This document shows, one piece after another, positions 1-55,504 of a DNA stretch of 55,739 bases. The stretch spans positions 1-55,739 of IMG/VR virus record IMGVR_UViG_3300028103_000021; one strand, given 5' to 3'. A model generated the notes under the pieces. That model ran no database searches. It was not told the origin of the DNA and saw nothing but the letters and a program-made list of their open reading frames with translations. How positions within the stretch are numbered: position 1 is the stretch's first letter; each line of letters opens with the position of its first letter. The translations under genes were made by a program, and so were the position numbers. The DNA is from a virus.

Positions 1-3000
1 ATATAGCTCCAGCAGCAGATATTAATCCTAATACTCTTTTTGATGCAAATTTTGTAATACCACCAAGAGATAATTCTCCAAAATTTAATCCTGTTCCAAT
101 AGTTTCAGAAATAATTTTATCTTTCCAAATACCTGCGGTTGTAGTTGCTGTACTAGAACCTATAGCTCCTTCTGCTATACTTTTAAATAATTTTCCAGAA
201 CCAAACTCTCCTGTTTTTGCCGATTGTTGATTAGTAAATGCTTGACTATAATCAAAGAAATTATAATATCCAAAACCTTTAGTTTTATTAGTGCCTAATA
301 ATTCTGTTGCTATTCCAATCCCAGGAATTAAATTAAATCCTGTTGGTCCAGTTAATTCACCCTTTAGTTGAGTTTGTGCAGATCCATATTTTTTAAGAAG
401 TTCTAATTGATCTGCTGCTTTTTTATCTCCTCCAGCAGCTTTTGCTGATAAATCATTCAAAGTATTTAATTGAGTATTAGCTGAATATGAGCTTCCGCCA
501 AAAATACCAGATATTTCTCTTCCTCTTTTTCCAGTAAATATGTCAGAAATTACATTTCCTATAGCAAAAGAACTTCCTAAACCACCAATAAATTTTTGCG
601 ATGCTGCAAGAGCAGTTCTATTTCCAATAAGTCCAGAACCACCAAAAAGTTTAGACATAAAATTAATTGGAGCAGCACTTGAAGCAATTGCTCTTGGCGC
701 TACTGCAAAACCAGCCATAGCTCCAGCTGTTGGTAATATAGATTCTTTTGCAGATTCAAAAAATCCTTTTCTTCCAGCACCAGCCTCTTGAGCAGCTGTA
801 ATTCCAGAAAATAAACCTGCCATTGCTACAGTTGGACTTTTAAGAGACTGAATAAATTTATTGCCAACAATTTGCGCTCTACCAGGTTTTAATTCATTTG
901 GATTTATTATTTGCCCATTACTAAGTCTATAAACTGGAGCGGTTGGAGGTTTTTGGCCTTGTCTTAAAGCTTCCTGTGTTTTTTCATATGTTTGAAATGC
1001 TTTTGATGGAGAAGTAAATCTTCCTGTGACAGCATCTCTTACATTTTTAAAACTTTCTGCTTGAAGTTGTTGTTGATTGCCAAATAGATACTTATCTAAA
1101 GTCTCAATTCCTTTTCCGCCAAAACTAAATGTTTTTTCAAGTGCCGTATTAGCAAAATTAGTTAGTGGAGTTCCAATATTTCCTTTTAAATTTAAACCTT
1201 CCATTAGTTTAAGTGATCCAGAACCAAGACCCATCAATCCTTGTATTGACCTAGAGCCAAAGTTATATAAACCTTTGCCAATTGTTGATACTTGTGCATT
1301 TCTTAATAAGTACGATAAGCCAAGACCTTCAGCAGATCCAAGAGCAGAAGCATAAGGAGCATCAAAATAGTGTCCTGCTAATAATCCTCCAATAAGCGCT
1401 GAACCTCCCATGCCAAATAGTGGTCTAGCAAATTTTCCAACCTTACCAAGTAAATTTGGAGATTCTTTTTTATCTATATACTTTTTAAAAGATTCCCAAT
1501 TTTTATTAGTTTCCGGTATGTTATCTTTTTTTCTGCCAAATAAACTGTAAATTTTTTCTCTAGTAAAAGCCTTTTGTTTAAGCCATTCATAAAGAAAATC
1601 TTGTTTTTTCGGTTTTGGATTTCTAATTCTTTCAAATTTTTCCGCCCTATCTCTTTTTGTTCCAGATCTTGTATCGCTTTCTCTATATCCCTCATTAGAT
1701 GCTTGTATTCTTCGTCTTCTTTCTGCCCTTTCATCCTTTGATATATAAGGTTTTATTTTTTCTGCTATATCTTTATCGAATTTAATTTCTGGAAAATCAC
1801 TTGCTGATAAAAACGGCTTTTCATTAATTAAATTTCTAAATTCTGGAAATTGTGAAAATATTTTAGCAATCTCTTTTGGTCCGTAACCACCAGCAATTGC
1901 TGTATCATCGCCGGCCATTAACCTAGCAAATAATTCTCTATTAGATGTAAGATAAGCTTTATATAAAGCTTTCTTTTGTTCTAATGATAAATTTAATTTA
2001 CTAGCTGTATTAGCTGATATACTGCCTAAACCAGCTGCTTTTCTATAATCATCATGACCTAAAAGACTATTAATAAAATTACTTGTTTCTACACGATCAT
2101 AATTTACAAGATTGACACGCTTTTCTGCTGCTTCAATCATTATTTTTCTTAAGTTTCGCAGCTGTGAATTTTTATTAAAATCAATTGTTTCAGATCTATA
2201 TTTTTTAGTATATGGATTATAATCAGCAGCGTGTGCAGATTCATGATCTATAGTTTGAAAAAATTCCCATGCGCTAGATATTCCTCCTCTAGCTCCTAAA
2301 TTAATATTTAAAACTCCACCCTCACGATCAAAAGTTCCTGCTGTTGCTGATTTTATTTCATTTGAAAATGAAATATGCTTTAAACCAATTCCAGAGCTAT
2401 ACTGATATTTTTTAGAAAAATTGTCTCTTATAAATTTTTCAAGAGCTATTTCTTTATTACCCGTTAAATATTCTTGTGTATTTATTTTTCTATATTTTTC
2501 TTGATTTTGATAAATTTCTTGTAAAGTTTTAAGTTCGCTTTCAACACTTCCGCCTTCAGATAAATATCTAATCAAGCCACCATTTTTTTTGTAAGCATTT
2601 TTAGGAACTACATATTCACCTGGAGTTAATAAAGCTAATTCACTATCCGTGTCTCCAATTCCTTCAACTTTACCACCCTTGTTATATCCTCGAAACCGTA
2701 ATCCACCACTAGTTCTAAGCCCAAAAGCAGTTCCAACATTTTTAGCACTTGCTTCAGCTGGATTATACAACGCTTTCCTTAAGGACATTAATTCTACTAT
2801 TAAACTTTTAATTTCTGATGTTAATGCATCTGTTGATAATGGTTGTTTAACAGAAGATTCAGCTAAAATATTGGCAGCATTTGATAATTCATTTATTTTT
2901 TTTGTTACTCCTCCTTCTTGCTGTAATAAATTCTTGTCACTTAAAAAAGATTTGACCAACTCATTTCTAACATTTTCAGCACCTATACCACCACCAGAAG

Positions 3001-6000
3001 ATATAGATTTTATTCTTTCAAAAGCAGCTTTAGCTTCTGGGGATAATCCAGTTGTATTTGCTCCTCTAAAATCTCCTTTTTTAAGATCAGTTAATAAGTT
3101 ACTGGCAGTCACATCTTTTGAAAGAATTCTTAAATCTTCTTCTAATGTTCCAGCTTTTTCAAAAATACCTTTAGCAGAAACAATCCTGTCTCTTTCTTCT
3201 TGTGCTGTAGAACCTTTCAATAAATCAGCAAAAGTTTTTCCACCAACTGTTTTCTGAGATTCCAAAGTTAACCTAGCGCCTTGGGCTTGCCTTAATCTAA
3301 TTAAATTATCTTCTTTTTGAATTTCTTCTACTTTTTGTTTTCTTTGTATTTCTTGAGTAAAAATTCTTTCCAATGATGATAAAAATTGATCGCCTATTTG
3401 TTTTAATTTATCAGTTGACTGTGCATTATCTTTAATAAACTTTGCGTATAGTTCAGCTGCTTTTACTTGATCGGCAGCAATAGCAACAAGATCTTGTCTC
3501 GCTTGATCTGCTTTATCCTGTTCTGTTTTTATATTTAATTGCGGAAATCCTTTTGCTAAAGCTCTATTTTGTATTTCTTCTCCAGTTATTCCACCGAACT
3601 CTGGAAGTCTTACATTTCTAAATGTATCTGTAAAAGTAGCAAACTGTTTTCTTGCCTTTAAACTAAAACTCATAATATCTGCGCCAGCATTAACTTGCTC
3701 GGCTATGCCACGACCTCTTTCAATTTCCCTTAATTGTTTTCTATCTGCCGTTAACAATGTTCTAGCAGCATTTAATTTTGCTTCTCTTTGCTGTTCAGCT
3801 TCAGTAAGTCTTGATTGAGCTTCGGTAGATCTAGTTGTTTCATCTCTTAAATTTGCAAGAGCATCTGCTAAATTAGCAGCTTTATCTTTAGCTTCTTGAT
3901 GTTTTTGAGCTAATAATCTAGCAGCTTCTTTTTGCGCTATATTTCCAGAAGCTAAATTAACAAAGGATGACTCAAGATCTTTTCCTGTTGAAATAACCTC
4001 TTTTTGAGCAGAAACTAAGTCGTTATAAATAGCTTGTGGATTTAAAGCATTTTGTGCAGGAACACCTAAGTTTGTTTGTCTTTCAACCAATGGTCTTAAA
4101 ATATCTTGTCTATTTAAGAAATTGCTTACTGGTAATCCAGTTCTAGATGCTTGTAGTTCTGCTTGTAGTTTAGCTAAGTTTGCAGTAGCGTCACTAACTT
4201 TTTGTAGTTCTGACAAATACCTATTTTGTTCTTGAGAAATTTTAGCCAAACCATTTATATATGCCTGACCAACTTTTGTTATGGCTTCTGATGTTGAATT
4301 AGCTACAGATTGAAATTCTTGAATTTGAGACTGAAGAGCTTCTTTAGCTGCTTTTGTTGGATCAAACGCTGCCCCTCTTCTGGTCAAAGAAGCTTGATTT
4401 CTTTCTAAATAATCTTGTACAACTTGTAATAAATCACGACCAGTACCTTGTTGTACATCAATGCCTCTACCAGCTAAAAGTTTTTCTAATTGATCATTAA
4501 AATTAGCACCTTCTAAACCACCTTGGGATTTTATTACTGCTAATACTGATGGCAACTCAGTTAAAAATTGATTTAAGACCTGTGCTTGTTCTATTTGTGG
4601 TTTAGCTTGTTCTCCAAATGGAGAAAATACTTGTTTAATCGCATTAGAAAATGTCGCTTGATCAGAACCTAATTTGACACGGCTTTTAATATCTGGAGTT
4701 CTAAATTCTGCACTTCTACTAAGAATATCGGTTACATAAATAGTAGAATTTGATAATTCTTCAAATTTTGATATAGCAGATTCTACTGAATTAGACAAAA
4801 ACTCTAAAGAAGATGAAAATCTATTTGCTGCATTAATAGAACTTTGTCTTACTTGTTCGACTCTTTGCTCATCTACTACAGACCTTGCTAATGCAAGAAT
4901 AAGTTTATTTAATTCTTCTCCGGCTTTTCCAGATGCATCGCCTAGTAAATTAATTAAATCTGCATTAATTGGACTAATTCTAAATGTTTGAAAAAGTTCA
5001 GCAGCATTTATTTTTTGATTGCCCAAAACGCTACGCAATCTATCTTGAATTATTTGAGTTGCTCCCTGCAAAGAACCAGAGAATTTTCCTTTTAATTCAT
5101 TTTTTAGTTGTTCTGGATCTAAAGATTCATTTAATGAAACTAATGCCTGTCTTTCTTTTCTATAATTTTTTACAAAAGAACTCAATTCTGTTGTTTCAAC
5201 ACCAGCAGTAGGTATATATTCTTTATTAGATACTAAATCGGAAACGCTTTGATTAATTTTATCAACGGCCTTGTCAATTCTTATCTTTTCTATTTCTTTA
5301 CTTGCATTAAAAAATTGTTTAGTAAGTCCAATAACTCCAGCACCTACAGCAGCAATTCCAATTACTAAAGGATTCATTGTTGGTGCAGCAATAGCTGCTG
5401 CCGTAGTGGCATCTGTAATTGCTGATCCTAAAGCACTAAAAGTTTGATATCTTGTTTTTGATATTTGTCCAGAAACAACTTGTTCTGCTGTTCCAGCCAT
5501 CGCTGATGCAGCTTCACCGCCGTAAATTGATCCAATAGCACCAACAGCAGTTAATGATCTACCAACTTTAGTTTGCGTTAACCCAGAGAATAGTCCATTT
5601 GTTTTTACTTCATTTGTAAAATCTGTTATTGCAGATTTTAAAGAAGAAAAACTGTTTGAAACACTAATTATAGCTCTATTTAAAGGGCCTTTGGATATTT
5701 TTAAATCATCTGCAACGCCACGGAGATTATCATTAACTTTTACAGTTCCTGCTTTAATATCTTTTTCTAATGACTCTAAACCAAAAACTCTTCCTTGTTT
5801 AACAACTATATTTGCATTCTGTTGTATAGCCTGAGAATATTTTTGAGTAGCTGTTTCAATTAAAATTTCGTTATCATTAATGCCTGTTAAAATTCTTAAC
5901 TGTTCAGATATAGCAACAATAATCTGATTTCTTAGTTTGTTTTCCTCTTCTGCTAAAAATCTTTGTTTAGTAGTGGTTCCTAATAAAGCTTGTTGTTTTG

Positions 6001-9000
6001 GATCTTTGGTTACTTTTTCAAATCTGCTTATTGCTCTTTCTTCTAAAATACCAGCTACTGTTTCTTTTCCTGCGAGTGGTGTAACCTTTGTAGCCGGTTT
6101 AAATGTGTAAGACTGTTCTCCGGTTGGCAAAGCAGAAGCTGTTAATGAAGTGATAGTTTTTTGTCGTTCTTTTTTAAGCTCATCCAATCTTGTTTGCGCT
6201 TGAATAACTGATGGATCTGTAGCTGATGTTGCTGATGCTCTAGCTGTTGCCAAAGCAGATGTAGCTGTTAATATTTTCCTATCTTGATCTTCTAATAATT
6301 TTAATGTACTTGCAGCCATTGCTCTAGATTGAGAAAGAGCTTGCGATTGACTTAAGTCCACTCTAGTTGCGCTTATTTGTGCATAAATAATATCGGCTAA
6401 AGCCTTTTCTGCATCTGCTAAACTTTTTGTAGAATTTATTAATGTTTCTAAATTATATGTTTTATTTCTAAAAATTAAACCTCTTTGTTGTGGAATAACC
6501 ATTTCTCTTTCTGGTTGTCCACCATTAGCTAGTCCAACTCTTCCGCCTAAAGCAAATTTACCAAATTTATTCATTCTGTCTAAATTAGCGCCACCAATAG
6601 ATGATGCAGCGCTTGGAGAAAATACAAACTCGCCTGGAGTTAAAATAGCTGGAACTCTACCACCTTTTGCAAATCCTTTTCTAGACATATTCATTAAATT
6701 ATCAGCGCCAATTTTAGCAACAGAAGATTTGCGTATTACAAAAGAACCTTCGTCTAAATCCATTGGCACACTATCTGAATTGCCAGTACCAGGAACTATA
6801 AATCCGCCAGAAGCTTTTTTTTTCTCTTTTATTCTTTTAAAAGAAGGTTCTTCTAGTTGTTTGTCTTTGTCAATTATACTTTTAATCCCCTCTTTAAAAA
6901 GGTTAACTTCCTTATCTAAAATTTCCTTTCCTTTTACAACACTTCGTTTTGTTTCAACAAATAAATTTCTTTTATTTGATATTTTTACTAAGTCTTCCAA
7001 CCCTGGCAGTTGTTTGATTTGGTCATAAGATCCAAAAAAATCTACTGGAAAATTAGCATCTCTTAAACTAGCATCTTTTAACTTTTCTGTGTTTTTTACT
7101 TCATGTTCAAATAAATAACCTTCCAATTGATATGCATTACTTTTATTTAATATGGCTTTAGCAATTTCATAACCTCTTACTTCTCCATATGTATTTTTTA
7201 ATGATTGTATTTTTATCGTATTTTCATTATCTTTTATTATTTTTTTTGCTTCTAATTGTATTTTTTTTGAAAGTAAAACATCTTTATTTTTATATTTTAC
7301 TTCTGGATTATAAATAAATGTTGGTATATGACTATCTTGAATTTCTACTTCTTGTTTTATAGGTTTGCCATTTTTATCTTTTGCAGAGAATATATAATTT
7401 GCTTGTCCTTGAATAAAAGATTGACTGTCTTCTTTTCGCTGTAATTTAGGACTACTTTTTGTTTGTCCTAACGCTACCTGTATTACATTTCTTAGAATTC
7501 CACTTTTTTGATATTCTTCTAAGTCTATAGTTCCTCCTTTTGCATATTTCTTCGGTATTACTAATTCGCCTGGTTCTAATAATGCAGGAACAATATCACC
7601 AGATCCACTTCCTGGTACAACACCGCCCCTTTTCATTCTTACAATGCCACCATCAGCAAATCTATTTTGATTAAATATCTTTGGGTTTGGACTTGCTGTA
7701 ATGCCGGTACTAAAACCTTTAACAAACTGACCAATTCCGGTGGCAACTTTAACTGTAGCTATAGCTCCAATAAGAGGAATCAAAGGCTTTAAAGCATCTG
7801 CCAATTGAATAGCTGCACTAGCGCCAGATATAAAAGTATCAAATAATTTTTGAAAACCAGTCGATTGAGTTATAGATCTAATTAAAGCATTAAATTCTTC
7901 TTTTAATTTCTGTAACTTAATCGCATAGGCTAATTGTGCTTGGCCAGCATTTTGAGACAACGAAGTAGAACCAGCTATAGCAACATTAACCGCTTTTTGA
8001 CTAATTGCAAATTCTTGAATAAGAGGAATAACTTTAGAAATTTGACGATAGCCACCTAACTCTTCTACAATTTTTGCAAATTGAGGATCAGTAGTAGGTA
8101 AAGATGATAATGCAGCAGAAAGCCTCCTAATAGCTTCGTAAGGACCAACGAACTGTTGTTCAAGATTAGCATTTCCAAGAGCTAGAGCTTCTTCTCTGCT
8201 ATATCTAAGATTTACACCTAGTTCTTTAAGGGCGTTTACAGTATTTCCACGCTGTATTCTTGTAAATATAGTACGCAAACCGGTACTGATTGTTTCTGCG
8301 CTTTCTCTAGTTGTTTGTCTTACAGATGTAAACAAACCTAAAAGTTCATTTAAGTCTCCACCAGCAGCTTTGAAAGCACCACCAGTTTTACGAATTGCTT
8401 CTACAATATCCCCAGCTTCAACAGCGAACTCGCCAGCAACTGCATTAACAGCGCCTAAAGCTGACTCAAGATTATTCGCCCCAATCTTAAACTGATTAAG
8501 AATGGCAATAGCACCTTCAGTTGTGTTTGCAAAATTTTCAAAGTTTGGTGCTAAAGCAGCTTTTGCCAATGCTTCCAAAGCAACTCTTGTATCATCAATT
8601 GATAAGTTGGCTTGCTTTAATGTAACGGCAGCTTGAATAAGATCTTTGCTAGAAACACCTAAAGAAGTTGAAAGTCTAGTTACTTCATTAACAACACCTT
8701 GAATAGCAGAACCACTATCGCCAGAAACCTGAACAAGTTTAACCATCTGACGGTCAAAATCTATAGCCTCTGATGTCGCTTGTTTAATAGCACTTGTTAA
8801 TTGAATCATTGATCCAGCAGCTAAACTAAATGCCCCGAATCTTTTTGCTGCCAAACCGGCTTGACGACCAAAACTTTCTACAGATGTAATTGCTCCTTCA
8901 ATATCGGCTTTAATTCTTCTAATAGAATCAGAATTGGCCAAACTAAGATCTACAGTAACTTTTTTATTAGATAGTTGTCTATTAAGATCGTTTGATATTT

Positions 9001-9058
9001 TTGTAGCTGCTCCAGAAGCGAGAGCAACATTCATTATAGCGGTAATATTAAAAGCCAT
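1..9058 (-). CDS. Tape measure protein, 3' end missing (at least 3019 codons)
   Basis: The frame is open from the ATG at 9058 to the window edge, so the C-terminus is missing. The start has a good ribosome site (AGAGGA, 4-5 bases upstream). Residues about 60-450 look like the TP901-type phage tail tape measure domain: helical, Ala/Gln rich, with 'GDLNELLGLFTSVRQTTRES' at about 230-250, and followed by hydrophobic helices. Glycine-rich linkers of the type GGxVPGxGxGDxVPALLxPGE occur near residues 475-495, 750-820 and 2120-2150, a motif common in tape measure proteins. Between them lie long coiled-coil stretches. Residues about 2190-2400 hold a metallopeptidase-like domain, and hydrophobic Ala/Gly segments follow. 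The protein should set tail length and be threaded through the tube. It lies downstream of tube and chaperone genes, as is usual. Short plus-strand ORFs here are shadows. Confidence 0.93.
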   Translation of the reverse strand, partial: MAFNITAIMNVALASGAATKISNDLNRQLSNKKVTVDLSLANSDSIRRIKADIEGAITSVESFGRQAGLAAKRFGAFSLAAGSMIQLTSAIKQATSEAIDFDRQMVKLVQVSGDSGSAIQGVVNEVTRLSTSLGVSSKDLIQAAVTLKQANLSIDDTRVALEALAKAALAPNFENFANTTEGAIAILNQFKIGANNLESALGAVNAVAGEFAVEAGDIVEAIRKTGGAFKAAGGDLNELLGLFTSVRQTTRESAETISTGLRTIFTRIQRGNTVNALKELGVNLRYSREEALALGNANLEQQFVGPYEAIRRLSAALSSLPTTDPQFAKIVEELGGYRQISKVIPLIQEFAISQKAVNVAIAGSTSLSQNAGQAQLAYAIKLQKLKEEFNALIRSITQSTGFQKLFDTFISGASAAIQLADALKPLIPLIGAIATVKVATGIGQFVKGFSTGITASPNPKIFNQNRFADGGIVRMKRGGVVPGSGSGDIVPALLEPGELVIPKKYAKGGTIDLEEYQKSGILRNVIQVALGQTKSSPKLQRKEDSQSFIQGQANYIFSAKDKNGKPIKQEVEIQDSHIPTFIYNPEVKYKNKDVLLSKKIQLEAKKIIKDNENTIKIQSLKNTYGEVRGYEIAKAILNKSNAYQLEGYLFEHEVKNTEKLKDASLRDANFPVDFFGSYDQIKQLPGLEDLVKISNKRNLFVETKRSVVKGKEILDKEVNLFKEGIKSIIDKDKQLEEPSFKRIKEKKKASGGFIVPGTGNSDSVPMDLDEGSFVIRKSSVAKIGADNLMNMSRKGFAKGGRVPAILTPGEFVFSPSAASSIGGANLDRMNKFGKFALGGRVGLANGGQPEREMVIPQQRGLIFRNKTYNLETLINSTKSLADAEKALADIIYAQISATRVDLSQSQALSQSRAMAASTLKLLEDQDRKILTATSALATARASATSATDPSVIQAQTRLDELKKERQKTITSLTASALPTGEQSYTFKPATKVTPLAGKETVAGILEERAISRFEKVTKDPKQQALLGTTTKQRFLAEEENKLRNQIIVAISEQLRILTGINDNEILIETATQKYSQAIQQNANIVVKQGRVFGLESLEKDIKAGTVKVNDNLRGVADDLKISKGPLNRAIISVSNSFSSLKSAITDFTNEVKTNGLFSGLTQTKVGRSLTAVGAIGSIYGGEAASAMAGTAEQVVSGQISKTRYQTFSALGSAITDATTAAAIAAPTMNPLVIGIAAVGAGVIGLTKQFFNASKEIEKIRIDKAVDKINQSVSDLVSNKEYIPTAGVETTELSSFVKNYRKERQALVSLNESLDPEQLKNELKGKFSGSLQGATQIIQDRLRSVLGNQKINAAELFQTFRISPINADLINLLGDASGKAGEELNKLILALARSVVDEQRVEQVRQSSINAANRFSSSLEFLSNSVESAISKFEELSNSTIYVTDILSRSAEFRTPDIKSRVKLGSDQATFSNAIKQVFSPFGEQAKPQIEQAQVLNQFLTELPSVLAVIKSQGGLEGANFNDQLEKLLAGRGIDVQQGTGRDLLQVVQDYLERNQASLTRRGAAFDPTKAAKEALQSQIQEFQSVANSTSEAITKVGQAYINGLAKISQEQNRYLSELQKVSDATANLAKLQAELQASRTGLPVSNFLNRQDILRPLVERQTNLGVPAQNALNPQAIYNDLVSAQKEVISTGKDLESSFVNLASGNIAQKEAARLLAQKHQEAKDKAANLADALANLRDETTRSTEAQSRLTEAEQQREAKLNAARTLLTADRKQLREIERGRGIAEQVNAGADIMSFSLKARKQFATFTDTFRNVRLPEFGGITGEEIQNRALAKGFPQLNIKTEQDKADQARQDLVAIAADQVKAAELYAKFIKDNAQSTDKLKQIGDQFLSSLERIFTQEIQRKQKVEEIQKEDNLIRLRQAQGARLTLESQKTVGGKTFADLLKGSTAQEERDRIVSAKGIFEKAGTLEEDLRILSKDVTASNLLTDLKKGDFRGANTTGLSPEAKAAFERIKSISSGGGIGAENVRNELVKSFLSDKNLLQQEGGVTKKINELSNAANILAESSVKQPLSTDALTSEIKSLIVELMSLRKALYNPAEASAKNVGTAFGLRTSGGLRFRGYNKGGKVEGIGDTDSELALLTPGEYVVPKNAYKKNGGLIRYLSEGGSVESELKTLQEIYQNQEKYRKINTQEYLTGNKEIALEKFIRDNFSKKYQYSSGIGLKHISFSNEIKSATAGTFDREGGVLNINLGARGGISSAWEFFQTIDHESAHAADYNPYTKKYRSETIDFNKNSQLRNLRKIMIEAAEKRVNLVNYDRVETSNFINSLLGHDDYRKAAGLGSISANTASKLNLSLEQKKALYKAYLTSNRELFARLMAGDDTAIAGGYGPKEIAKIFSQFPEFRNLINEKPFLSASDFPEIKFDKDIAEKIKPYISKDERAERRRRIQASNEGYRESDTRSGTKRDRAEKFERIRNPKPKKQDFLYEWLKQKAFTREKIYSLFGRKKDNIPETNKNWESFKKYIDKKESPNLLGKVGKFARPLFGMGGSALIGGLLAGHYFDAPYASALGSAEGLGLSYLLRNAQVSTIGKGLYNFGSRSIQGLMGLGSGSLKLMEGLNLKGNIGTPLTNFANTALEKTFSFGGKGIETLDKYLFGNQQQLQAESFKNVRDAVTGRFTSPSKAFQTYEKTQEALRQGQKPPTAPVYRLSNGQIINPNELKPGRAQIVGNKFIQSLKSPTVAMAGLFSGITAAQEAGAGRKGFFESAKESILPTAGAMAGFAVAPRAIASSAAPINFMSKLFGGSGLIGNRTALAASQKFIGGLGSSFAIGNVISDIFTGKRGREISGIFGGSSYSANTQLNTLNDLSAKAAGGDKKAADQLELLKKYGSAQTQLKGELTGPTGFNLIPGIGIATELLGTNKTKGFGYYNFFDYSQAFTNQQSAKTGEFGSGKLFKSIAEGAIGSSTATTTAGIWKDKIISETIGTGLNFGELSLGGITKFASKRVLGLISAAGAI
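1934..2335 (-). other. HEXXH metallopeptidase-like domain inside the tape measure protein
   Basis: In the tape measure frame, bases 2231-2245 encode H-E-S-A-H (residues 2272-2276), an HEXXH zinc-protease motif. It is preceded by 'GTFDREGGVLNINLGARGG', the beta-hairpin that typically comes just before the zinc helix ('G.yd..g.i.in'). It is followed by A-A-D-Y and, about 100 residues later, by 'NRELFARLMAGDD' with Glu at 2375, which resembles the third-ligand helix (E-x-F-A-R) of gluzincin-like peptidases in phage polyvalent proteins. The motif, the preceding strand and the E-FAR helix can all be seen. Zinc binding and activity are inferred. A chance HEXXH in a 3000-residue protein is possible, but the matching flanks argue against it. 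Confidence 0.6.
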
Positions 9059-20100: not shown

Positions 20101-21758
20101 CCTCCTGGAGTACCAGGTGGAGGCAAAGGAGTTGGAGATGGAGAACTTGTTGGATTTGATAAAGAATTACGACACGAAATATTATTATCAAATGTATTAT
20201 AATCTTTTATTAATTGAGTATTGTTAGAATAATTAAAATGAATATTTTGGTTAAATGTTTTAGCAAAAGTAGATGGTAGTTCTATATGTGGATATAAAGC
20301 GGACATTGACACATTATCAAAAATATAATCAACTGGTTTTTGAGAAGAAGAATCTGAGAAAAATATTAAATTATCTGGAGAGTTTTTTAATTCTCTATAT
20401 GTTAAATAATAATTAGTTCCCAGTAAAGTAAGTTTATTATCTATGTATTTATATGGTTGATATTTTAGATTTGTCGCATAAAAAGAATTGTCATTAAGCC
20501 AAGTTAATTTTTGAAAATTAAAACCAGAAACTCCAATAAAATTAAACCAATCTTCTTTATAAAGTTCTTCTCCAGTAATTGGCATTCCAACTTCATCAAT
20601 TTCAAAAGTTCCACTATTATCAATCAGTTCTCTGTTAGAATCTAAGATATCATAAAAAGAACTTTTTCTAAAAAAATGGAATGTAAAAACTTGAGATGAT
20701 TTATAAAATTTAGCAGGATTTATATCAGTATCTATTTTTAAAACTAAACCTTTTATACTATCTTGTTTAAGTTCAACTACTTTGGCAAATCGTGCTTCAT
20801 CGTCTAATGGTTCATATTTTGGTAATGATTCATGCGGAGGATATGCGCTAGTTCCATTGCCTAGGTTACCATCTATATCACATCCTTTATAATTCATCAA
20901 TATAGCATCTGAGCATATGTAATCATCAAACAAAACATTCGCTAAAAAGAATCCAGATAAATATGAAGGTTCGTCAATACTACCTATGGACTGAAGATTT
21001 ATTTTTGATCCATTTATAGATAAATTTAAAATATTTGAAATATATATTTCTTTATTTTCTCTATCAAAATCCCTAATTTCTAAATCAAATGTAACAGGAA
21101 ATGAAAACCTAGATAAGTAAAATAAATCATAACCATTGTTTACATTGCCCGAAGCAAGTTTAAAAAGTGAATTAATATTCAAATAAGCAGATGATGATAA
21201 ATAACTTGGTAAATCTTGATCATTATATTTTACATTAAATTTTCTTTTTGGAAAATTGCACCAGCCCCCACCAAGATTTGGGTATGAAATAGCAAGAGTT
21301 GGCGCATTTAGCACTTCTTTATTTAAAAAATCATTGGAGGAAAATCCATAACATGGTTGTTCTGCCGGATTTAAAGAAGAACCAATATATTTCATTTCAA
21401 TTACTAATTCATGATTTCCTTCTGGCAAAGTAATAGTAAAAGGAGATATTGGATCTCTAGTCGGAGGAGCAGTAACTAAAGATGATGGAAATAGTCCTGT
21501 GGAATCGCTAACTATTTGGCTAAAAATATTTAATGGATCATTTTCAATATAATTAAATGTTACTGTAGGAGTTCCAGTATATTCATAAATATGGCCTTTC
21601 CAATTTCCTCCAGCACCATAACTAGATGACAAATAAGATTGTAATGGATAATTTGCTGGAAAATTTGGAGTTGATTTATAAGTAATTTTAAAGGTGGATT
21701 TATCTCCAGTACCAGTACCAGTATTTACATTAAGAAGATTTAGAGAGAAACTGCTCAT
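17148..21758 (-). CDS. Giant collagen-like fibre protein, Gly-Pro-rich
   Basis: This 1536-residue protein starts by ATGA overlap with the upstream stop. Residues about 1-540 form a beta-rich N-terminal region. Residues about 543-726 and 864-993 consist of collagen-like Gly-x-y triplets ([12 protein letters not shown]) separated by copies of a proline-rich hinge ([11 protein letters not shown]). Between the two blocks is a folded region with cysteines. The C-terminal third is Cys-containing with Pro/Thr linkers, for example [13 protein letters not shown] and a CTIC pair, and ends in a Pro-rich tail. Such Gly-Pro-Pro rods should form trimeric fibres. It is probably an exposed appendage. Gene context among other fibre-like proteins supports this. 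Confidence 0.8.
18782..19165 (-). repeat. Collagen-like Gly-Pro repeat tract 2
   Basis: Codons repeat GGx CCx GGx in triplets with interruptions by the [11 protein letters not shown] hinge. The repeated DNA produces long shadow ORFs on the opposite strand. Confidence 0.9.
19580..20130 (-). repeat. Collagen-like Gly-Pro repeat tract 1
   Basis: This is the longer Gly-Pro-rich tract, with blocks of [10 protein letters not shown] separated by the hinge [11 protein letters not shown] (variants [11 protein letters not shown] and [10 protein letters not shown] also occur). It encodes a rod with regularly spaced flexible joints. Confidence 0.9.
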
Positions 21759-24700
21759 GGAAAAATACTCTCTTTAAGATTAAATGTTGATGAATATTTG
21801 TCACTCAATGCGTAAATGCCATATTGATTATCTATAGTGATTACACTACTGATATTATCTTTTGGCATATAAAAAGATCCATTCTTAATACTTATTAAAA
21901 AGTTATTAGTACCATTGAAAACATTTAAATCACCTTCTATTTTATTAACTATTCCTAGCGTACTATTATCAACAGATACTAAGTATAAAGTTTTTCCATT
22001 AACTGATTCCTTGGTTATAGAAAATTCAGATATTGAAAGGGTAGAATTATTTGAAGAATTTGTAAAAATTATATACGGTTTGTATTTTTCATCATTAGAT
22101 GATAAATAATGACTTTGTGATTGATATAACATTTCAAAAATAGCAGATGAATTTTTAGAAGTTGCTATTGATTCTCTAAATTTAAAAATGCTTGTTCCTT
22201 GATTATCTAATGAAACAACATTAAATGTTGATGTTGTTGGTAAATTAACATCGGATGTCTTTACATAATTAAAGCTATTTCCATATACATTATTAATTGA
22301 ATATGCTGTATTTTTAAGCGCTGGCAAGATAGTTATTTTTGCATCCGTTATGGTTTTTTGTTTTGTGTAAAACATTAATGGGCTAATTGATATTATAGCC
22401 TTACCATCCTTTACTTCAAATAATGATGTATCTGGAGTATAGATAGAATCTTTAATATTAAAAGAAAAAGAGTCATTTTCAACAGGTGATATTAATAAAT
22501 TAAAAAAGCCATTTAAAGGAACGGTTTGACTAGTTTTTTGATCTATTAATTCTAAATTAATTATTAAATTTGAACCGCCAAATTCTATAGGTATAGATTG
22601 TTCAGAACTATCAACTGTTATTTCAAATTTCCAATTAGAACCATCTATTATTGGAAGTGGATCATTACCTAATATTGGGGGAGAAATAGCAACTGTTGGA
22701 TTACTTGTGTATCCAGTTCCTGGATTAGTAATTGTAATTCCAGTAACAATGCCATTAGAGACTGTAGCTACTGCGGTAGCCCCTGTTCCATCACCAGAAA
22801 TAGTTACTGTTGGATTACTTGTATAATTAGAACCGGAATTACCAATACTAATAGATGTTATCTGGCCCAAACTATTAATAGTTGTAGCGCTAACAGTCGC
22901 TGTTCCAGAATTTCCCGAAGACGATAATGTTACAGTAGGATTAGATGTATAACCAGAGCCTCCGTTATTAATCGAAACACCAGTTATTATTCCGTTTGAA
23001 ACTATTGGAGTTGCTGTAGCTCCAGAACCATTTCCTCCAGAAATAGTAATTGCTGGCGGTGTTGTATAACCAAGACCCCCATATATAACAGGTATTCCTA
23101 CAACTTGCCCCTGACTATTAATAATTGCAGTACCAAAAACTGCTGTTGTGCCACTATATTTAATAGATGTTACATGCAAATCACAATTACATGCTCTTGG
23201 ATATGAATCAAATATCTTGATAGAATTACCATATTGCGCTTTTTGCAAAAGAGAAACTTTATCTAGTCTTCCTAGATTAATAGGATCTGTAATTGATGGA
23301 GATTCTGGGCCTTTTACAAATTTACCCCAAGGATATTTTGATGAATAAGAAATATAATCGGAAGGAACAACATCTCTATTTATTGAAGATATAGTTTTCT
23401 TAGTTATTTGAGAACTAATATTAACTAATGAAAAACTAGCACTTTCTAATTCAACTTCAATATCATACCATCTAAGTGGATCTTCTTCTTTAACTGACAT
23501 TTTTTCAAATGTTCCGCTATTTGCAGCAAAAAACTTATCTAATGGTAGTTGCAATATAGAAACACAATTTACTGGAGCCATATCTCCATTTAATTGTTTT
23601 GATTGATAGTCAAATGAATTTTGTGTTCCGTCTGCTTTTAATGGGGCCGGTTCTAGAAATTCATGACAATTTTTCTTAAATACCATAAACATATTTGCGC
23701 TATCATAATCACTAGTTATATAAGTGTCTGGGCATGAATGCTGTTCAACTAGTGTATTTTCCCAAGCAGAAGCTTTTCCTGTAGAACTTATTTTAAATTT
23801 AGATACATTAAAACTTGAATTTGATCCTTGATGATAAAAACCATAAACAGAATCTTTAGTAAATACTATATAGTCGGCATAGCCAGATCTATCTTTTGAA
23901 AATATAGCTATTGATTTACTTAAACTATAATAAACATTGCCAACCTTAACAAATCTATCAGTTATAAAACCTAAACCATTTTCTGTGATGGTTGGGCATT
24001 TAGTGTCAACTTCTAAAAATGGAATAGCTGTATCAAAATATTCAAATGAGCAATCGCTTACAGTTTCTAAATTTTCTGGATTGTTATAAACAGGTAAATT
24101 TAAATAACCCTTTAATAACTTTCTTGAAGTAATATCAAAATAAGTTCCTGGTATTTTTCCAAATTTTTGTTCGTGAGCAAATGTTCCAGACCATAAATCA
24201 ACCGATTGATTAGCGAAGAAGTTTTCAACAAAATGATTTGATGTTATTTTTTTAACTAAATTTTCATTTGCTGTATTTTGAAAAAATGTGCCATGTTCAT
24301 TTATTGTTATAAAAAATCTTCCATTAGAATTTTTTAAATATGCTGGATCATATTTATTATCTAAGTCAAAAGAGTTGCACAAAAGTTTATAAGAATCAAA
24401 TGTATTTGGTTCTGCTGAACTCGTATAGTAATTACCTAAAAATGGTTTTTTCAATAAATAACTACCATTAAGTTTAGGTGTATAAATATCATTTTTATCG
24501 TAAGTTACAACTAAAACATAAGGTCTAGATAAAATATTTTTAAAAGAAAAGTCTTGGATAATAAGGGCTAAACCATTACCAGATTTAGCAGAAGAAATCT
24601 TAATAGAATAGTTAATTATTTTTTTATCTTGGGTAAAATTAGGCAAGTAGTAATTAGAAACTGCGTACTTGGATGTTAATCCAGAAGAAGAATCTTTATT

Positions 24701-27700
24701 TAAATTTATTCTAAGATCTGCGTATGGACTTAAACCACCCTGATGATCAGATCCGAGAATTACTAAAAATTCACTCGTTGGTTGAACCGGAGGAATTGGT
24801 TCTGTAGAGCCAGTACCACAATTAGTTTGGCCCAAAGCTTTTAAAGAAGCTAAACATTCATTATAACTAAAATAAGTTCCCGTACTATCACATGTACATG
24901 TATAGCAATTATTTGGAGCATCATATATAGGTTTATATTTTGGGCAAGGAGTAGTCGTAGTTGTAGTGGTAGTAGTGGTAGTGGTAGTTGTCGTAGTGGT
25001 AGTTACTACATCTTGAACTGTTACTGGTATTTTAAAAGTATTAAAGCCTAGATATTCAATCTGTTGACAATTTGACGATCCACCATAACCACAAGACATA
25101 TCATAACCAACAAAAACATCAATTCTTTTTGCTATATCTGCTGGTATATCTTTTTTATTAATGCCTTCTTTTATTTTTATAGTTAATGGAGGTATTGTTA
25201 CTTTACCATCTACTATTTCATATGAAATAGAAGACATCCAACTAGCGCCCTTCCAATTTGGAGTAGCGCCTTCTACTTCCAAATAATTACCTGTAGTAAA
25301 TACTAAAGTGAAACCGGCTGGTTGTGGCCATAAATTTGAATTTAAAGGAATTTGATAATTGTTGGAAACAATACCCTTTCCATCTACTGTGACAACAAAC
25401 ATTTCTTCTGTTTGAACAGATGTTTCATTTGGTAATATAGTTAAATCTGGATAGTCAGATTGATCAAATACTGTAAGATTGTTTTGAAATGTTACAGGTT
25501 CAGTTAAACCAGTTATGAATTGATGAGCTACTGTATAATCTCTTTTTACAGTCAATATTCCAGATGCCGTAAGTGTTGCACCGCCATCAAGTTCTAATTC
25601 AAAGTTAATAGTTAAATCATGAGTGGCATTATTTTCAAAAATAGATGGATCTACGCCATTCCAAACTAAATAATATCTAGAATTAAAATCTTTAAAAGAT
25701 AAATAATTTCCTCTAACAATTCTAACATTATCAAAAGAAAAATTATATTCATTAACTATTGTAAAATTAGGATCATCTGTAGTTACGGTTAAATAACCAT
25801 TTGTTTGAATATTTGCGGTATTTCCATTGTAAGTAAACCTTAAAGCAATATTTTCTAAAAGCACTTGTGCATTTTTATCTAATTTTGCTAAAAAAGGAAG
25901 GCCATAATAAACTTCCATTAAGTTAGGGGCATTATAAGAAGGTTGTGATGGCGGAAATGGAGGAGATGGATTTACATATGGAGGAGGACTATACGAAAGA
26001 GAATATGATAAAGAATTAGTTGTTCCTACAAAAGTTCCTATATAATCTATAGCTCCTAATGCTGGATCAAAATTCTTACCGTAATATCTTGAAACAACAA
26101 TTGTACCATCAATCATTCCGCCAGACGGAACTTTTGTTTCTAAATAATATTCACCAGTAACACTATCATATTTAATAGCATCAATTCCAGATCCTTGTCC
26201 ACCAGAATAACTAACTTGATCACCTATATTAAATCCGCAAGGACTATTAATGTAAATCTTAAGCGTTGTACTATATTTAAGTTCTGATGGTTCTATTCTA
26301 GTTATTTCTGCTATACATGTTCCAGAAGTAATTTCTACATTTACTGTACAATAAATATAAGTGTTATTACCTTGCGGGAATTTAACAATTACAGGATTTA
26401 TTCCTGTATTTGCGTAAAAAGGAACTTCAGTAATTACAATCCCATCATCAACATATTTTACTTTGCTGGCAGGACTCTGATTTGTATTCCCTGCTGCATA
26501 ATATGAAGCTGGTGGATTTGGATCTAAAATCCATTCAAATAAATATGATCCAATTGGAAGTTGTGATTTTGTAAAATTACCTCTAAAAGCAACATTAAAT
26601 GTAGGTTCTATAGGACTGGAATAAGTTATAGAGTTACAAATAGTTGGAGTAGGCGTAGGCGTAGGCGTAGGCGTAGGAGTTGGAGTAACTGGTTGGGCAG
26701 AGCAAGTGCCTAAAAATAAATAAGTTCCATCAGAATCGCAAGATGTTAAAGCTACTACTCCACTAACTCTGTCAAACGAACCAGAAATTATATTTACAAT
26801 CTTTCCATTTTGTAATGGAAGATCTATAATATCCCAATTTTTTAAATCTTTTGATAATGCTATTTTTCCATAACCATATATTAAATAAGAATCATTTAAT
26901 ACTAATAAACCTGTCCAATAATTAGTAACTTGTGGTAATTGAAATCGTGTCCAATTAGTAAAATCTGTACTTACTTTTACTTCTATTCCATTGAAAATAA
27001 TTAATTCATTATTTGGATTAATCGCATTATTATAATTAAAATTAATTCCTGGAAATAAATTAGTTCCTCCAATATTACGATCTGATTTTATTAAAATTAA
27101 TTTATTTGAATATATATCTTTTTCAAATAAATAAAAACCATCATTAGCTAAAGCTGCATGACTAACTCTTCCTTGATAAACTACGCTTAATAATTTTACA
27201 TCTTGTTGTACTATATTATAAAAATCTAAGGATGATTGATCTATTGGAATTTGTTCAAAAACTGGCGGATTACTAAATGGGCTATAAATAGATGGAAATG
27301 GAGAAGTTCCTAATGTTATATAATCATCTGCTATATGATTCTTTACTATAAAAGGTAGTCCGTCTAAATCTAATGCAGCAGTACCATCTTCATATAAGGC
27401 AGGACAATTTAATATAACCGATGGTTTATCAGATGAGTCAGAAAGTAAATTTTTTGTATGCGATATTTTTACTCTTGATACTGAATAAAAACTTGAAAAG
27501 TTGAAAGTTTGCCAATTACTACCAACTTGATCAATGTTTTTTTGTTTTTCTATTAAATTATTATCAATATCATATCCGTAAATTCTTACTAAACCACTAT
27601 GAATAAAAACTTCTTTTATTTTAAAATCAGGACTTGGATCAAAATCTTCGTCATTAACTAAATCAAATATTCCTATATTAGCAGATATGTCAGCAGTTTT

Positions 27701-27937
27701 TTCAAAAGTAAAATTACAAACAGAAGGTGGCGCTGTGGTTCCTATTGAGGTTGTAATTGGTTTTACTGGCAACCAATCATTAACTGTTATATCCCAAAAA
27801 TATGTACTGTTATTATCAGTATTGTACCAAAAAGCCGGTCTACTTCTTTCTAGTACATCCGGCCTTTCTGCTTGAATAAAAGTTAATATATCTTTTGAAG
27901 CATTAGAAATTCCAGACAAATTATTTGGGTTAGGCAT
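21755..27937 (-). CDS. Giant multidomain fibre or tail surface protein
   Basis: This 2060-residue protein overlaps the upstream stop by 8 bases. Residues 1-65 contain the Trp module ([20 protein letters not shown], then W). A PT dipeptide tract lies at about 416-431 and a run of roughly 20 threonines at about 977-996, next to a Cys-rich segment ([15 protein letters not shown]) that may be disulfide-bonded. Residues about 1616-1759 are tandem glycine/serine-rich units with GYTSNPTV. The rest is a chain of Ig- or lectin-like beta modules and a region with [10 protein letters not shown]. No enzyme motif is seen. The architecture (beads joined by low-complexity linkers) fits an exposed adhesin. 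Confidence 0.7.
22665..23092 (-). repeat. Four tandem [10 protein letters not shown]-type protein repeats
   Basis: About 35-residue units of the 2060-residue protein share the consensus GSGYTSxPTVxIS-GxGxGATA-VxNGxVTGIxIxN. The units alternate strands and turns and would stack as a beta-solenoid or string of beta hairpins. Confidence 0.8.
24948..25008 (-). repeat. Poly-threonine tract (about 20 Thr)
   Basis: Mixed ACN codons (ACT, ACC, ACG, ACA on the coding strand) encode a run of about 20 threonines in the 2060-residue protein, followed by PCPKY. The use of several synonymous codons suggests selection for the Thr run rather than recent slippage. Confidence 0.85.
26643..26690 (-). repeat. 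Pro-Thr dipeptide tract
   Basis: A 6-bp period (CCTACG on the coding strand) encodes (PT)7-8 in the 2060-residue protein. This type of linker is a flexible, often O-glycosylatable spacer. Confidence 0.85.
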
Positions 27938-30143
27938 ATGCGTTTCCTGAGAAAGATACCCAATTAGAGCCGTTACTATCAGTTACCCAAAAATACAAAA
28001 TCGCATTTTCAGTATCATACCAAACAGCGAAAGAATTTGCAGCAGGATTAATTGCTGGTCTTGTCGATTGTTGATAAAAATTAACTGTGGTAGATCCAGA
28101 AGCTCCTTGAAATCCTTGGTATCCCTGTGGTCCAGAAGATCCGGTTGGTCCAGTTGGGCCACTAGAGCCTGGTAATCCAGTAGGACCAGTAGGGCCAGTT
28201 GCTCCGTCAGATCCTGGTGCGCCATCAGATCCTGCGACACCATCAGAGCCATAAATATCTCTAACAGAAAATGTTCTACTTTTAGAAGATTGAGTAGATT
28301 CAAGTATTAATGTTGATGAAGATTCATTGTAAGCTATATCCCAAGTTACTAAGTTTTTAGTTCCAGTAAGAGCATTATTATTTGTCGTATTAGGAACCGC
28401 TGTATTATCACCAGAACTTAAACGAATAGCCAAAGTTTCTGGAGATGATCTAAAATCAAAGTAGTATCTTTGACCTCTAATTAGAGTAATCGCAGAATTA
28501 TTAGCAACGCCATTAATTTCTATTGCAGAAGAATTGCTAGTTACTGTGTATAAAGTTCCGCCACGCTCCCCGATATCACCTTGAAAACCCTGTCTTCCTT
28601 GAAAACCTTGAGAACCAGTAACACCTTGTCTGCCCTGAGATCCTTGTGGTCCTAAAAGACCTGTCAAACCCTGTCTTCCTTGATAACCTTGAGGCCCATT
28701 AGATCCACCAGTAGCGCCAGCCTGAGCCATTGTGGCCCAATATAAAGGATTTGTATCTGGCTGTTTAGGACTAGAACTTGTACTTCCTAATATTGCTATA
28801 TAACTAGTGCCACCATAATAAACTGAATCGTTTACAGAATAGTTAGCAGATATTGACCAATCGCCTCTCCATGTTATTCCTATAGATCCTTGAGATCCTT
28901 GACTTCCTTGAGAACCATTTGTTCCTGCTGATCCCTGCGAGCCTTGTGTGCCTTGAGATCCTTGGCTACCTTGATGACCTTGAGATCCGGTACTACCAAT
29001 AAAACCTTGATTGCCTTGCGATCCTTGAGATCCTTGTAATCCCTGATTTCCTTGGCTACCTTGACTACCTTGATTACCTTGACTACCTTGAACACCTTGG
29101 CTACCTTGATTACCCTGATAACCTTGATTTCCTTGTGCGCCATTAGATCCACTAGTTCCATTTGTTCCTTGCAAACCTTGCAAACCTTGATAACCCTGCC
29201 TACCTTGAGCGCCTTGATCTCCTTGATCACCCTTTTCACCTATATAATCAACTGCGTTGATAGCTCTTGTAATAGTTCCATTTGTAATTGATTGAATAAT
29301 TATTCCTGTAGATGGAGCATCTAAAGGAACATCATATGTAATGATTGATCCAACAGTACCGCTTGTTTCATTGTTATTAGCACTTGTTCCAGTAACATCG
29401 GTTGTTAAACCAGAACCATTTCTAATAGCTACATAATGAGTAACTGCGCTAAAATCAAAAATAAATCTTTGACCACGAACAACTTCAATAGGATCTGAGT
29501 TACTTGTTATGCCAGATACAACAAATTGAGTGCTTGGTAGAGTTACAGTAAAAGTGGTTCCACCTTTAGACCCTTGTGAACCTTGAAAACCTTGATATCC
29601 TTGAGATCCAGAAGATCCAGTAGAACCTTGGAAACCTTGCGATCCCTGAGAACCTTGAGAACCCTGAGAACCTTGTAAACCTTGGTTTCCAGTAGACCCT
29701 TGAGATCCAATAACACCTTGAGACCCCTGAGAACCCTGCGTACCTTGAGAACCTTGAGAACCTTGAGATCCTCTTTCTCCTTGTGAACCTTGGTTACCCT
29801 GTGAACCTTGTCTGCCCTGAGAACCTTGAGAACCTTGGGAACCCTGAGAACCTTGTAAGCCTTGATTGCCTTGAGAACCTTGACTTCCTTGAGAACCATT
29901 TGTTCCAGTAGTTCCTTGAGAACCTTGAGAACCTTGCGATCCCTGCGAACCTATTGAGCCATCACCAAAAGCTGCCCAATAAGTAGTGGCAGTCGAAGGA
30001 TTTTCATTAGTAGAACCAAGAATAGCTATATATGTTTTTGAACTATAAGTAACTATATCATTAACTGCATATACGCCTTCGGAAGACCAAGTACCTTTAT
30101 AAAGTGTTCCTATACTTGTTCCACCGGTATTAATTAATGGCAT
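27930..30143 (-). CDS. Collagen-like fibre protein with carbohydrate-binding-like modules
   Basis: This 737-residue protein has a modular layout. Residues about 4-53 and 423-471 are CBM5/12-like modules (W-S-x-x-G-x-Y-x-V-N-D-x-V-x-Y, ending in Y-W). Residues about 195-300 and 526-625 are two copies of a cupredoxin-like beta domain ('IEVVRGQRFIFDFSAVTHYV' and 'ITLIRGQRYYFDFRSSPETL'). Between them are Gly-Ser-Gln collagen-like tracts (GSQGSQGSQG), and a GPTGPTG tract precedes the C-terminal Trp module (AVWYDTENAILYFWV). A signal peptide is absent, as expected for a virion protein. It likely forms a trimeric fibre carrying sugar-binding heads. The ATG overlaps neither neighbour significantly. 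Confidence 0.8.
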   Translation of the reverse strand: MPLINTGGTSIGTLYKGTWSSEGVYAVNDIVTYSSKTYIAILGSTNENPSTATTYWAAFGDGSIGSQGSQGSQGSQGTTGTNGSQGSQGSQGNQGLQGSQGSQGSQGSQGRQGSQGNQGSQGERGSQGSQGSQGTQGSQGSQGVIGSQGSTGNQGLQGSQGSQGSQGSQGFQGSTGSSGSQGYQGFQGSQGSKGGTTFTVTLPSTQFVVSGITSNSDPIEVVRGQRFIFDFSAVTHYVAIRNGSGLTTDVTGTSANNNETSGTVGSIITYDVPLDAPSTGIIIQSITNGTITRAINAVDYIGEKGDQGDQGAQGRQGYQGLQGLQGTNGTSGSNGAQGNQGYQGNQGSQGVQGSQGNQGSQGSQGNQGLQGSQGSQGNQGFIGSTGSQGHQGSQGSQGTQGSQGSAGTNGSQGSQGSQGSIGITWRGDWSISANYSVNDSVYYGGTSYIAILGSTSSSPKQPDTNPLYWATMAQAGATGGSNGPQGYQGRQGLTGLLGPQGSQGRQGVTGSQGFQGRQGFQGDIGERGGTLYTVTSNSSAIEINGVANNSAITLIRGQRYYFDFRSSPETLAIRLSSGDNTAVPNTTNNNALTGTKNLVTWDIAYNESSSTLILESTQSSKSRTFSVRDIYGSDGVAGSDGAPGSDGATGPTGPTGLPGSSGPTGPTGSSGPQGYQGFQGASGSTTVNFYQQSTRPAINPAANSFAVWYDTENAILYFWVTDSNGSNWVSFSGNAYA

Positions 30144-52531: not shown

Positions 52532-52988
52532 AATGTTCACACACTCTCTTAAATAAACTCGAAGCTACTTCTCGCCCAAATTTTCCTGCAAGAATAATCT
52601 TTGTCTTAAATTGTACTTCTATATCTAAAAGTGCTTTTACAATAAACTGCGGAGTTATTTTTATAAACTTGTATTTGCTTGGGGGGATTTGAGTAGATTG
52701 AGGAAACTTGTAAATGTCTTCCATCGTAAATTCTAAAATAACAAATGGAAGCTCAAAGCTCTCAAGTCTTTCTAATTCGCTATGAAATCTTTTTTGTGTG
52801 ATGTTCATAGAGAATTCACTAAGATCTCCCTTCCTCTCTATCACAAATTTATCTTCAAAACCTTCTAATGAGTAATCGCCAGTTTTTAATGTGGCGATAG
52901 TCATTCCTTCACATGAAGGACTTGGATTGAATTCCCACCCAAGTTGTTCTCTAGTGTCTTTTATTACCTTATATTTTTTGTTGTTCAT
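52518..52988 (-). CDS. ERCC4-type nuclease domain protein
   Basis: This 156-residue protein has D11-T-R-E-Q near the N-terminus, 'LKTGDYSLEGFEDKFVIERK' (G37-D38-Y39 and E51-R52-K53) and D55: the GDYx...(V/I)ERKxxD core of XPF/Mus81-type nucleases (PF02732-like). 'FHSELERLESFELPFVILEF' forms the next helix and strand. It lacks the HhH domain found in XPF, so it is a stand-alone catalytic domain, as occurs in phages. It probably cuts branched DNA and might resolve concatemers for packaging, given that it is directly upstream of terminase. It overlaps both neighbours. Confidence 0.8.
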   Translation of the reverse strand: MNNKKYKVIKDTREQLGWEFNPSPSCEGMTIATLKTGDYSLEGFEDKFVIERKGDLSEFSMNITQKRFHSELERLESFELPFVILEFTMEDIYKFPQSTQIPPSKYKFIKITPQFIVKALLDIEVQFKTKIILAGKFGREVASSLFKRVCEHYGQT

Positions 52989-55407: not shown

Positions 55408-55504
55408 TGGTAGGATCGTTTTCGCAGATTTCTGCTTTCGTTTTTTCTGTAAGTTCTTCTTGTGCTTTAGCACTTATGATTGTTACAATATTTTCATCCG
55501 TCAT
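55364..55504 (-). CDS. Small acidic hypothetical protein overlapping the sigma-like gene
   Basis: ATG 55504 has AGGAG 8 bases upstream, the best ribosome site of this area. The 46-residue product begins MTDENIVTIISAKAQEELTE and ends at TAA 55364. It is acidic, lysine- and glutamate-rich, and probably helical. It overlaps the start of the sigma-like frame by 44 bases, in the +1 frame, so translation of the sigma factor may depend on it. No relative is recognised. Confidence 0.45.
   Translation of the reverse strand: MTDENIVTIISAKAQEELTEKTKAEICENDPTNAEEVIQKNIQLEK

What the first reader, a model, noticed from the sequence alone, without database searches (positions are those of the whole stretch)
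1934..2335. Metallopeptidase-like HEXXH domain in a giant tape measure protein
The in-frame motif HESAH at 2231-2245 with a preceding beta hairpin and a downstream ELFAR helix fits a gluzincin-like zinc protease. Tape measure proteins are known to carry cell-wall-degrading domains, but an HEXXH protease of this type might cleave host envelope proteins, or the tape measure itself, during DNA entry.
Basis: partly seen in the sequence, partly recalled or inferred. Interest (0 to 1): 0.72.

Follow-up and report, generated by a model that had tools for sequence, protein, structure and literature searches.

The report
Protease domain in a phage tape measure
A very large uncultured phage carries what looks like a zinc protease inside its tail-length 'tape measure' protein, in a C-terminal stretch where its close relatives have unrelated sequence, which suggests that tails of this kind can deliver interchangeable enzymes into bacteria.

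Summary
HESAH lies at 2231-2245 (minus strand; residues 2272-2276 of an open tape measure ORF, 3019+ aa, cut by the window edge), and E2375 of ELFAR lies 103 residues downstream. Chance gives 0.0014 HExxH in this protein, which has only 8 His. No named family matches and no close homologue was found. The gluzincin reading is supported. Twenty other phage zincins, fetched by motif, align with this domain at HExAHAxDY, at a Tyr before the Glu, and at ExFA. The joint profile's best PDB matches are M34-type metallopeptidases. AlphaFold2 on that alignment gives helix, three strands, HEXXH helix, Glu helix (pTM 0.69). Zinc geometry could not be measured, Foldseek gave nothing significant, and the model is partly circular. 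The larger point is the setting. Close relatives share the tail genes and the TMP N-terminus, yet residues 1901-3019 have no counterpart in them beyond a ~40-residue Gly-rich 'PGE' linker. A second, PD-(D/E)XK-like insert lies between two such linkers. Best reading: an exchangeable, virion-borne protease payload, like MuF toxins or polyvalent proteins but on the tape measure. Whether it cuts host proteins or the TMP itself is open.

The parts
2..9058 (-). Giant tape measure protein ORF, first 3019 residues; C-terminus lies outside the window
   Evidence: PF10145 PhageMin_Tail E 2.4e-24; PHROG tape measure families; SPbeta/YomI-type TMPs by tblastn
8051..8686 (-). PhageMin_Tail domain, residues 125-336, strongly conserved in relatives L005, L007, L010
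7529..7654 (-). Gly-rich 'GGxVPGxGxxDxVPAxLxPGExVI' linker 1
   Evidence: the motif matches 108 phage records, and the rows listed are nearly all annotated tape measure proteins
6824..7516 (-). Insert with a PD-(D/E)XK-nuclease-like pattern (QLEGYxFE..ANFPxD..VExKRS) between linkers 1 and 2; diverges faster than its flanks; pattern absent in L010
   Evidence: no family or PDB match
6704..6811 (-). Gly-rich linker 2 (EGSFVI form)
6584..6670 (-). Gly-rich linker 3 (PGEFVF form)
5309..5401 (-). Hydrophobic, possibly membrane-spanning segment, residues 1220-1250, present at the equivalent place in the relatives
2546..2683 (-). Gly-rich linker 4 (PGEYVV), directly before the zincin domain
1829..2455 (-). 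Gluzincin-like metallopeptidase domain, residues about 2202-2410
2231..2245 (-). HESAH, H2272-E2273-x-x-H2276; followed by AADY with D2279 at 2222-2224
1934..1936 (-). E2375, predicted third zinc ligand (ELFAR)
1952..1954 (-). Y2369, aligned with a Tyr that is near-invariant shortly before the Glu; candidate catalytic Tyr
2..3358 (-). C-terminal region of the TMP (residues 1901-3019) with no counterpart in relatives except linker 4

Best explanation
Residues ~2202-2410 of the tape measure protein form a gluzincin (clan MA, M34-like) metallopeptidase domain: zinc held by H2272, H2276 and E2375, catalysis by E2273, probably helped by Y2369. It sits in a C-terminal stretch of the TMP that is unrelated in close relatives and follows a Gly-rich PGE linker. 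It is therefore best read as an exchangeable protease payload that travels in the tail and enters the envelope or cytoplasm with the TMP at infection. There it most likely cleaves a host protein (my preferred step, about 50%), or else cuts the TMP to release neighbouring domains (about 30%). Shown here: motif, spacing, alignment, TMP context, dissimilar C-terminus. Inferred: fold in detail, zinc binding, activity, delivery, target.
For: HExxH at 0.0014 expected by chance. A profile from 20 phage zincins without this domain scores it 32.7 bits against 17.5 +/- 4 for shuffles that keep the motif (0 and 1 of 1000 as high). A Tyr near-invariant before the Glu, not used in selection, is present. 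The joint profile's best PDB matches are M34 enzymes (lethal factor 1.7e-4; PPEP/Zmp1 0.004-0.02). AlphaFold2: pLDDT 69.8, pTM 0.69, most of the core 75-88, canonical topology. TMP identity by Pfam, PHROGs and tblastn. Relatives L007 and L010 have 63-91% identical products for the seven genes next to the TMP and 80-95% identical TMP N-termini, but no similarity after residue ~1900 apart from the linker. No match to the domain in the relatives' records. Zincins of the same motif class are fused to MuF head proteins and polyvalent proteins.
Against: The domain is an orphan: no homologue by sequence in phages, plasmids, IMG/VR or GTDB scans. A single-sequence model is poor (pLDDT 40.8). The better model used an alignment chosen by the motif, so it is partly circular. 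Foldseek on it gave no match at E <= 0.001. With motif and ELFA both kept, 12 of 1000 shuffles score as high. No evidence on activity, packaging, ejection or target. Only one genome has this C-terminus, and the contig ends inside the gene.
Confidence: 0.55

Rival explanations
1. Processing protease: the zincin cuts the giant TMP itself, during assembly or after ejection, to free domains such as the nuclease-like insert, as proposed for zincins of polyvalent proteins.
For: Iyer et al. (PMC5512222) argue autoprocessing for DdrB and N4-type proteins; the TMP has domain-like inserts separated by Gly-rich linkers.
Against: Relatives with the same linkers and the nuclease-like insert lack this zincin, so processing by it is not required for this TMP architecture.
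Confidence: 0.28
2. Envelope-penetration enzyme: the domain degrades cell-wall peptide or an envelope protein to let DNA through, as M23 and transglycosylase domains do in other TMPs.
For: TMPs do carry wall-degrading domains: P23-45 TMP has Peptidase_M23; TMP relatives of the SPbeta group are annotated as lytic transglycosylases.
Against: The motif and profile match protein-cleaving gluzincins, not M23 or transglycosylase. The relatives' records lack it.
Confidence: 0.15
3. Degenerate or structural remnant: a zincin fold captured into the TMP that no longer cleaves anything.
For: Orphan sequence; no activity data; weak support upstream of HESAH.
Against: All residues invariant in the aligned family (H, E, H, D, Y, Glu, and the Tyr) are intact.
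Confidence: 0.1
4. The dissimilar C-terminus is an assembly chimera, and the zincin belongs to another gene or virus.
For: The contig ends inside this gene, and no second record covers the junction (L003 and L004 stop before residue 740).
Against: The frame stays open for 3019 codons across the place of divergence; similarity to L005 falls off gradually; a TMP-type linker lies directly before the zincin.
Confidence: 0.06

Closest known systems
Zincin-like MPTase domains of polyvalent proteins (Iyer et al. 2017, PMC5512222), e.g. N4 virion RNA polymerase
   Same: HEXXH helix, Glu on a second helix, three-strand sheet, Asp three residues after HEXXH; very large virion or injected proteins with other enzymatic domains
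   Different: Carrier here is a tape measure protein; that paper does not mention tape measure proteins (0 occurrences); no direct sequence match
MuF polymorphic toxins of phages (Jamet et al. 2017, PMC5576092)
   Same: Conserved phage structural N-terminus with varied C-terminal domains, 20% metallopeptidases and over half nucleases there; MuF zincins share the motif set
   Different: Tail tape measure instead of minor head protein; no immunity gene or toxicity shown; window ends before any downstream gene
M34 metallopeptidases (lethal factor catalytic domain, PPEP/Zmp1)
   Same: HExxH...Tyr...Glu pattern; best family hit by the joint profile in PDB
   Different: The domain alone has no PDB match; longer spacing between HEXXH and Glu; different carrier and target
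P23-45 tape measure protein fused to RNA polymerase (PMC10770324)
   Same: Giant TMP carrying an enzyme delivered from the virion, plus a metallopeptidase and membrane segment
   Different: Its metallopeptidase is M23, it has no HExxH, and the polymerase is at the N-terminus
Sle1/Tme tape-measure-related effectors of contractile injection systems (PMC13277306, PMC11126660)
   Same: TMP-like protein with exchangeable C-terminal functional domains
   Different: Bacterial nanomachines, not an infecting phage; 'peptidase' and 'nuclease' do not occur in PMC13277306

Membership tests
Gluzincin (clan MA, Glu-zincin) | HExxH on a helix | tested here: met
   helix 2263-2279 in the model
Gluzincin (clan MA, Glu-zincin) | Third zinc ligand Glu on a downstream helix | tested here: met
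   E2375 aligned with the Glu of 20 zincins without anchoring; helix 2373-2382
Gluzincin (clan MA, Glu-zincin) | The three ligands meet at one zinc | not testable with these tools
   model coordinates not available; Foldseek without significant hit
M34 metallopeptidase (lethal factor / PPEP) | Sequence or profile similarity to the family | tested here: inconclusive
   profile of this domain plus 20 others hits at 1.7e-4; the domain alone does not
M34 metallopeptidase (lethal factor / PPEP) | Catalytic Tyr shortly before the Glu ligand | tested here: met
   Y2369, six residues before E2375; its catalytic role is from general knowledge of the family
Phage-type polyvalent MPTase clade (Iyer et al.) | Asp three residues after HEXXH | tested here: met
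   D2279
Phage-type polyvalent MPTase clade (Iyer et al.) | Conserved His at the end of strand 2 | tested here: not met
   the only nearby His, H2228, starts strand 1 in the model
Tape measure protein | PhageMin_Tail/TMP family match, giant length, place next to tail genes | tested here: met
Polymorphic toxin (MuF-like) | Conserved N-terminal carrier with different C-termini between close relatives | tested here: met
Polymorphic toxin (MuF-like) | Shared pool of toxin domains with other toxin families | tested here: inconclusive
   motif-level similarity to MuF zincins, no direct homologue
Polymorphic toxin (MuF-like) | Cognate immunity gene downstream; toxicity | not testable with these tools
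   the window ends inside the gene; no experiment possible

The most novel reading that the evidence does not exclude
The tape measure proteins of this phage group are modular effector carriers: a conserved N-terminus that builds the tail, and enzyme payloads (protease, nuclease-like and others) exchanged between Gly-rich PGE linkers, so that each tail injects its own set of host-acting enzymes, a tail-borne counterpart of MuF toxins and polyvalent proteins.
Probability: 0.35. Interest if true: 0.75.

Novelty: new variant of a known kind. Interest (0 to 1): 0.52.

Why it matters
Zincin proteases delivered by phages are known from head (MuF) and polyvalent proteins, and TMPs are known to carry wall hydrolases and, in one phage group, an RNA polymerase. 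A protein-cleaving zincin in a TMP, in a region absent from near relatives, would make the tape measure a delivery vehicle for exchangeable effectors. It would also give a testable way to find early host-takeover enzymes in large uncultured phages.

Tried and rejected
Direct homology searches with the domain (Pfam, NCBIfam, PHROGs, PADLOC, PDB, phages, plasmids, IMG/VR, GTDB) gave nothing usable; Reprolysin_5 at E 0.056 was treated as noise. Single-sequence AlphaFold2 failed, and its Foldseek hits were ignored. Foldseek on the alignment-based model had no significant hit, though 14 of the 40 listed PDB matches are HExxH proteins (MATCAP, minigluzincins, Wss1, SPRTN, ChlB HExxH) and short SprT-like matches appear in BFVD; treated as suggestive only. 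An M23 domain as in P23-45 was rejected as the model for this one, since that TMP has no HExxH. N4 vRNAP family expansion gave only close relatives. The upstream hairpin as independent sequence evidence was rejected. The C-terminal remainder (2431-3019) is an orphan. Identification of the nuclease-like insert by profile failed.

Full report
What is there. The window is a 55.7-kb virus record whose main genes run on the minus strand from terminase and capsid-like genes to giant fibre proteins and, at the window edge, a tape measure protein (TMP). The TMP ORF covers 9058 down to 2 and is open for 3019 codons without its C-terminus. Its N-terminus matches PhageMin_Tail (E 2.4e-24) and PHROG tape measure families, and by tblastn the TMPs of SPbeta-like and other Bacillus phages.

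Chance. The protein holds only 8 histidines. The expected number of HExxH is 0.0014, and 0.08% of 5000 shuffles have one. ELFA occurs once in the protein, 103 residues after H2272, and the pattern Y-x(4-8)-E-x-F-A occurs in 0.4% of shuffles of the downstream stretch.

Is it a zincin? No curated family reaches threshold, and no homologue was found in any collection. I therefore scanned IMG/VR for the DNA of H-E-x-A-H-A-x-D-Y and kept the 20 loci with an E-x-F-A pattern 49-153 residues downstream and enough upstream sequence. Ten of these proteins were scanned; they include MuF head proteins, proteins with weak LPD1, M91 or ATLF matches, and a ddrB-ParB polyvalent protein. A profile of the 20, without this domain, scores the domain at 32.7 bits; shuffles that keep the motif average about 17.5 with SD 4, and 0 or 1 in 1000 reach the real value. 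If ELFA is kept too, 12 in 1000 do, and the upstream part alone adds nothing significant. In the joint alignment a Tyr shortly before the Glu is near-invariant although it was not selected for, and this domain has it. The joint profile's best PDB matches are M34 enzymes: lethal factor at 1.7e-4, then PPEP/Zmp1 at 0.004-0.02; one other match, P4 (6ncl) at 0.001, does not reach the Glu region.

Structure. AlphaFold2 on the single sequence is uninformative (pLDDT 40.8). With the 21-row alignment it gives pLDDT 69.8 and pTM 0.69, with 75-88 across most of the core: helix 2202-2214 (low confidence), strands 2228-2232, 2241-2244 and 2249-2253, HEXXH helix 2263-2279, and Glu helix 2373-2382. This is the gluzincin order described by Iyer et al.. 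It is partly circular, because the alignment was picked by motif. Foldseek has no hit at E <= 0.001, though HExxH proteins make up 14 of the 40 weak PDB matches. Zinc geometry was not measured.

Surroundings. Relatives were found only through the TMP N-terminus: L003-L011, contigs up to 221 kb. In L007 and L010 the products of the seven genes next to the TMP are 63-91% identical to those of the window. The TMP is 80-95% identical over its first 519 residues, about 25-50% over much of the middle, and from ~1900 on shares only a ~40-residue Gly-rich linker with the relatives. L005, 95% identical at the start, has there a region 52% identical to that of L007. The linker (GGxVPGxGxxDxVPAxLxPGExVI) recurs four times here and more often in the complete relatives; it is a TMP feature in other phages, with 108 records matched. 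One linker lies directly before the zincin. Two others enclose an insert with a PD-(D/E)XK-like pattern, conserved in the window, L005 and L007 but not in L010. The zincin is absent from the relatives' records.

How it most likely works. TMPs leave the tail with the DNA and insert in the host membrane (general knowledge, restated in PMC13277306). A protease carried in a part of the TMP where neighbours have something else is hard to explain as a tail-building need, and fits a host-facing role better; hence my preference for an injected protease that cuts a host protein, with self-processing second. Packaging, ejection, activity and target are inferred.

Known or new. Zincins in phage-delivered proteins are known (polyvalent proteins, PMC5512222; MuF toxins, 20% metallopeptidases, PMC5576092), and TMP-borne enzymes are known (RNA polymerase and M23 in P23-45, PMC10770324). 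Full-text searches for 'tape measure protein' with 'HEXXH' or 'zincin' listed two papers each, none of which by title or by the passages read reports this combination. I rate it a new variant of a known kind: M34-like zincin, new carrier, apparent exchange of the TMP C-terminus. Membership in the polyvalent phage-type clade is not claimed, because the conserved strand-2 His was not found.

Limits. One genome, one sequence of the domain, contig cut inside the gene, homology shown only through a motif-selected family, and no structural coordinates.

Noticed in passing
window 6824-7516 (-): Insert in the TMP with a PD-(D/E)XK-nuclease-like pattern (QLEGYxFE, ANFPxD, VExKRS) between two Gly-rich linkers; in L010 the pattern is absent. 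No family or PDB match.
   Followed up: partly
L007 10001-21551 with L012; L010 10001-21545 with L013: Complete relatives have TMPs of 3976 and 3911 residues with further inserts between PGE linkers and no Pfam match beyond PhageMin_Tail (plus a weak coiled-coil hit in L010).
   Followed up: partly
L006 1386-4537: The TMP reading frame in this contig is split into two overlapping frames near residue 535: a frameshift or sequencing error.
   Followed up: no
window 54796-55473 (-): 225-residue protein with weak sigma-70 region 2 match (E 1.7e-4) and a CxxCHEQGH..C stretch that looks like a zinc-binding knuckle, not a protease.
   Followed up: no
window 27930-30143, 35952-42029 (-): Tail fibre proteins of 737 and 2025 residues with many PHROG fibre and collagen-like matches; a 2060-residue protein at 21755-27937 has baseplate-wedge and structural PHROG matches near residues 1595-1810.
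   Followed up: no
window 50408-52540 and 52518-52988 (-): Divergent terminase large subunit (about 24-28% identical to the Bacillus phage Stahl/Slash group and Microcystis phage MaeS) next to an ERCC4-type nuclease.
   Followed up: no
L075 2922-3719, L079 5148-7022, L056 6158-8875: Phage head (MuF or MuF-like) proteins with zincin domains of the same motif class; L056 also carries an ADP-ribosyltransferase match.
   Followed up: partly
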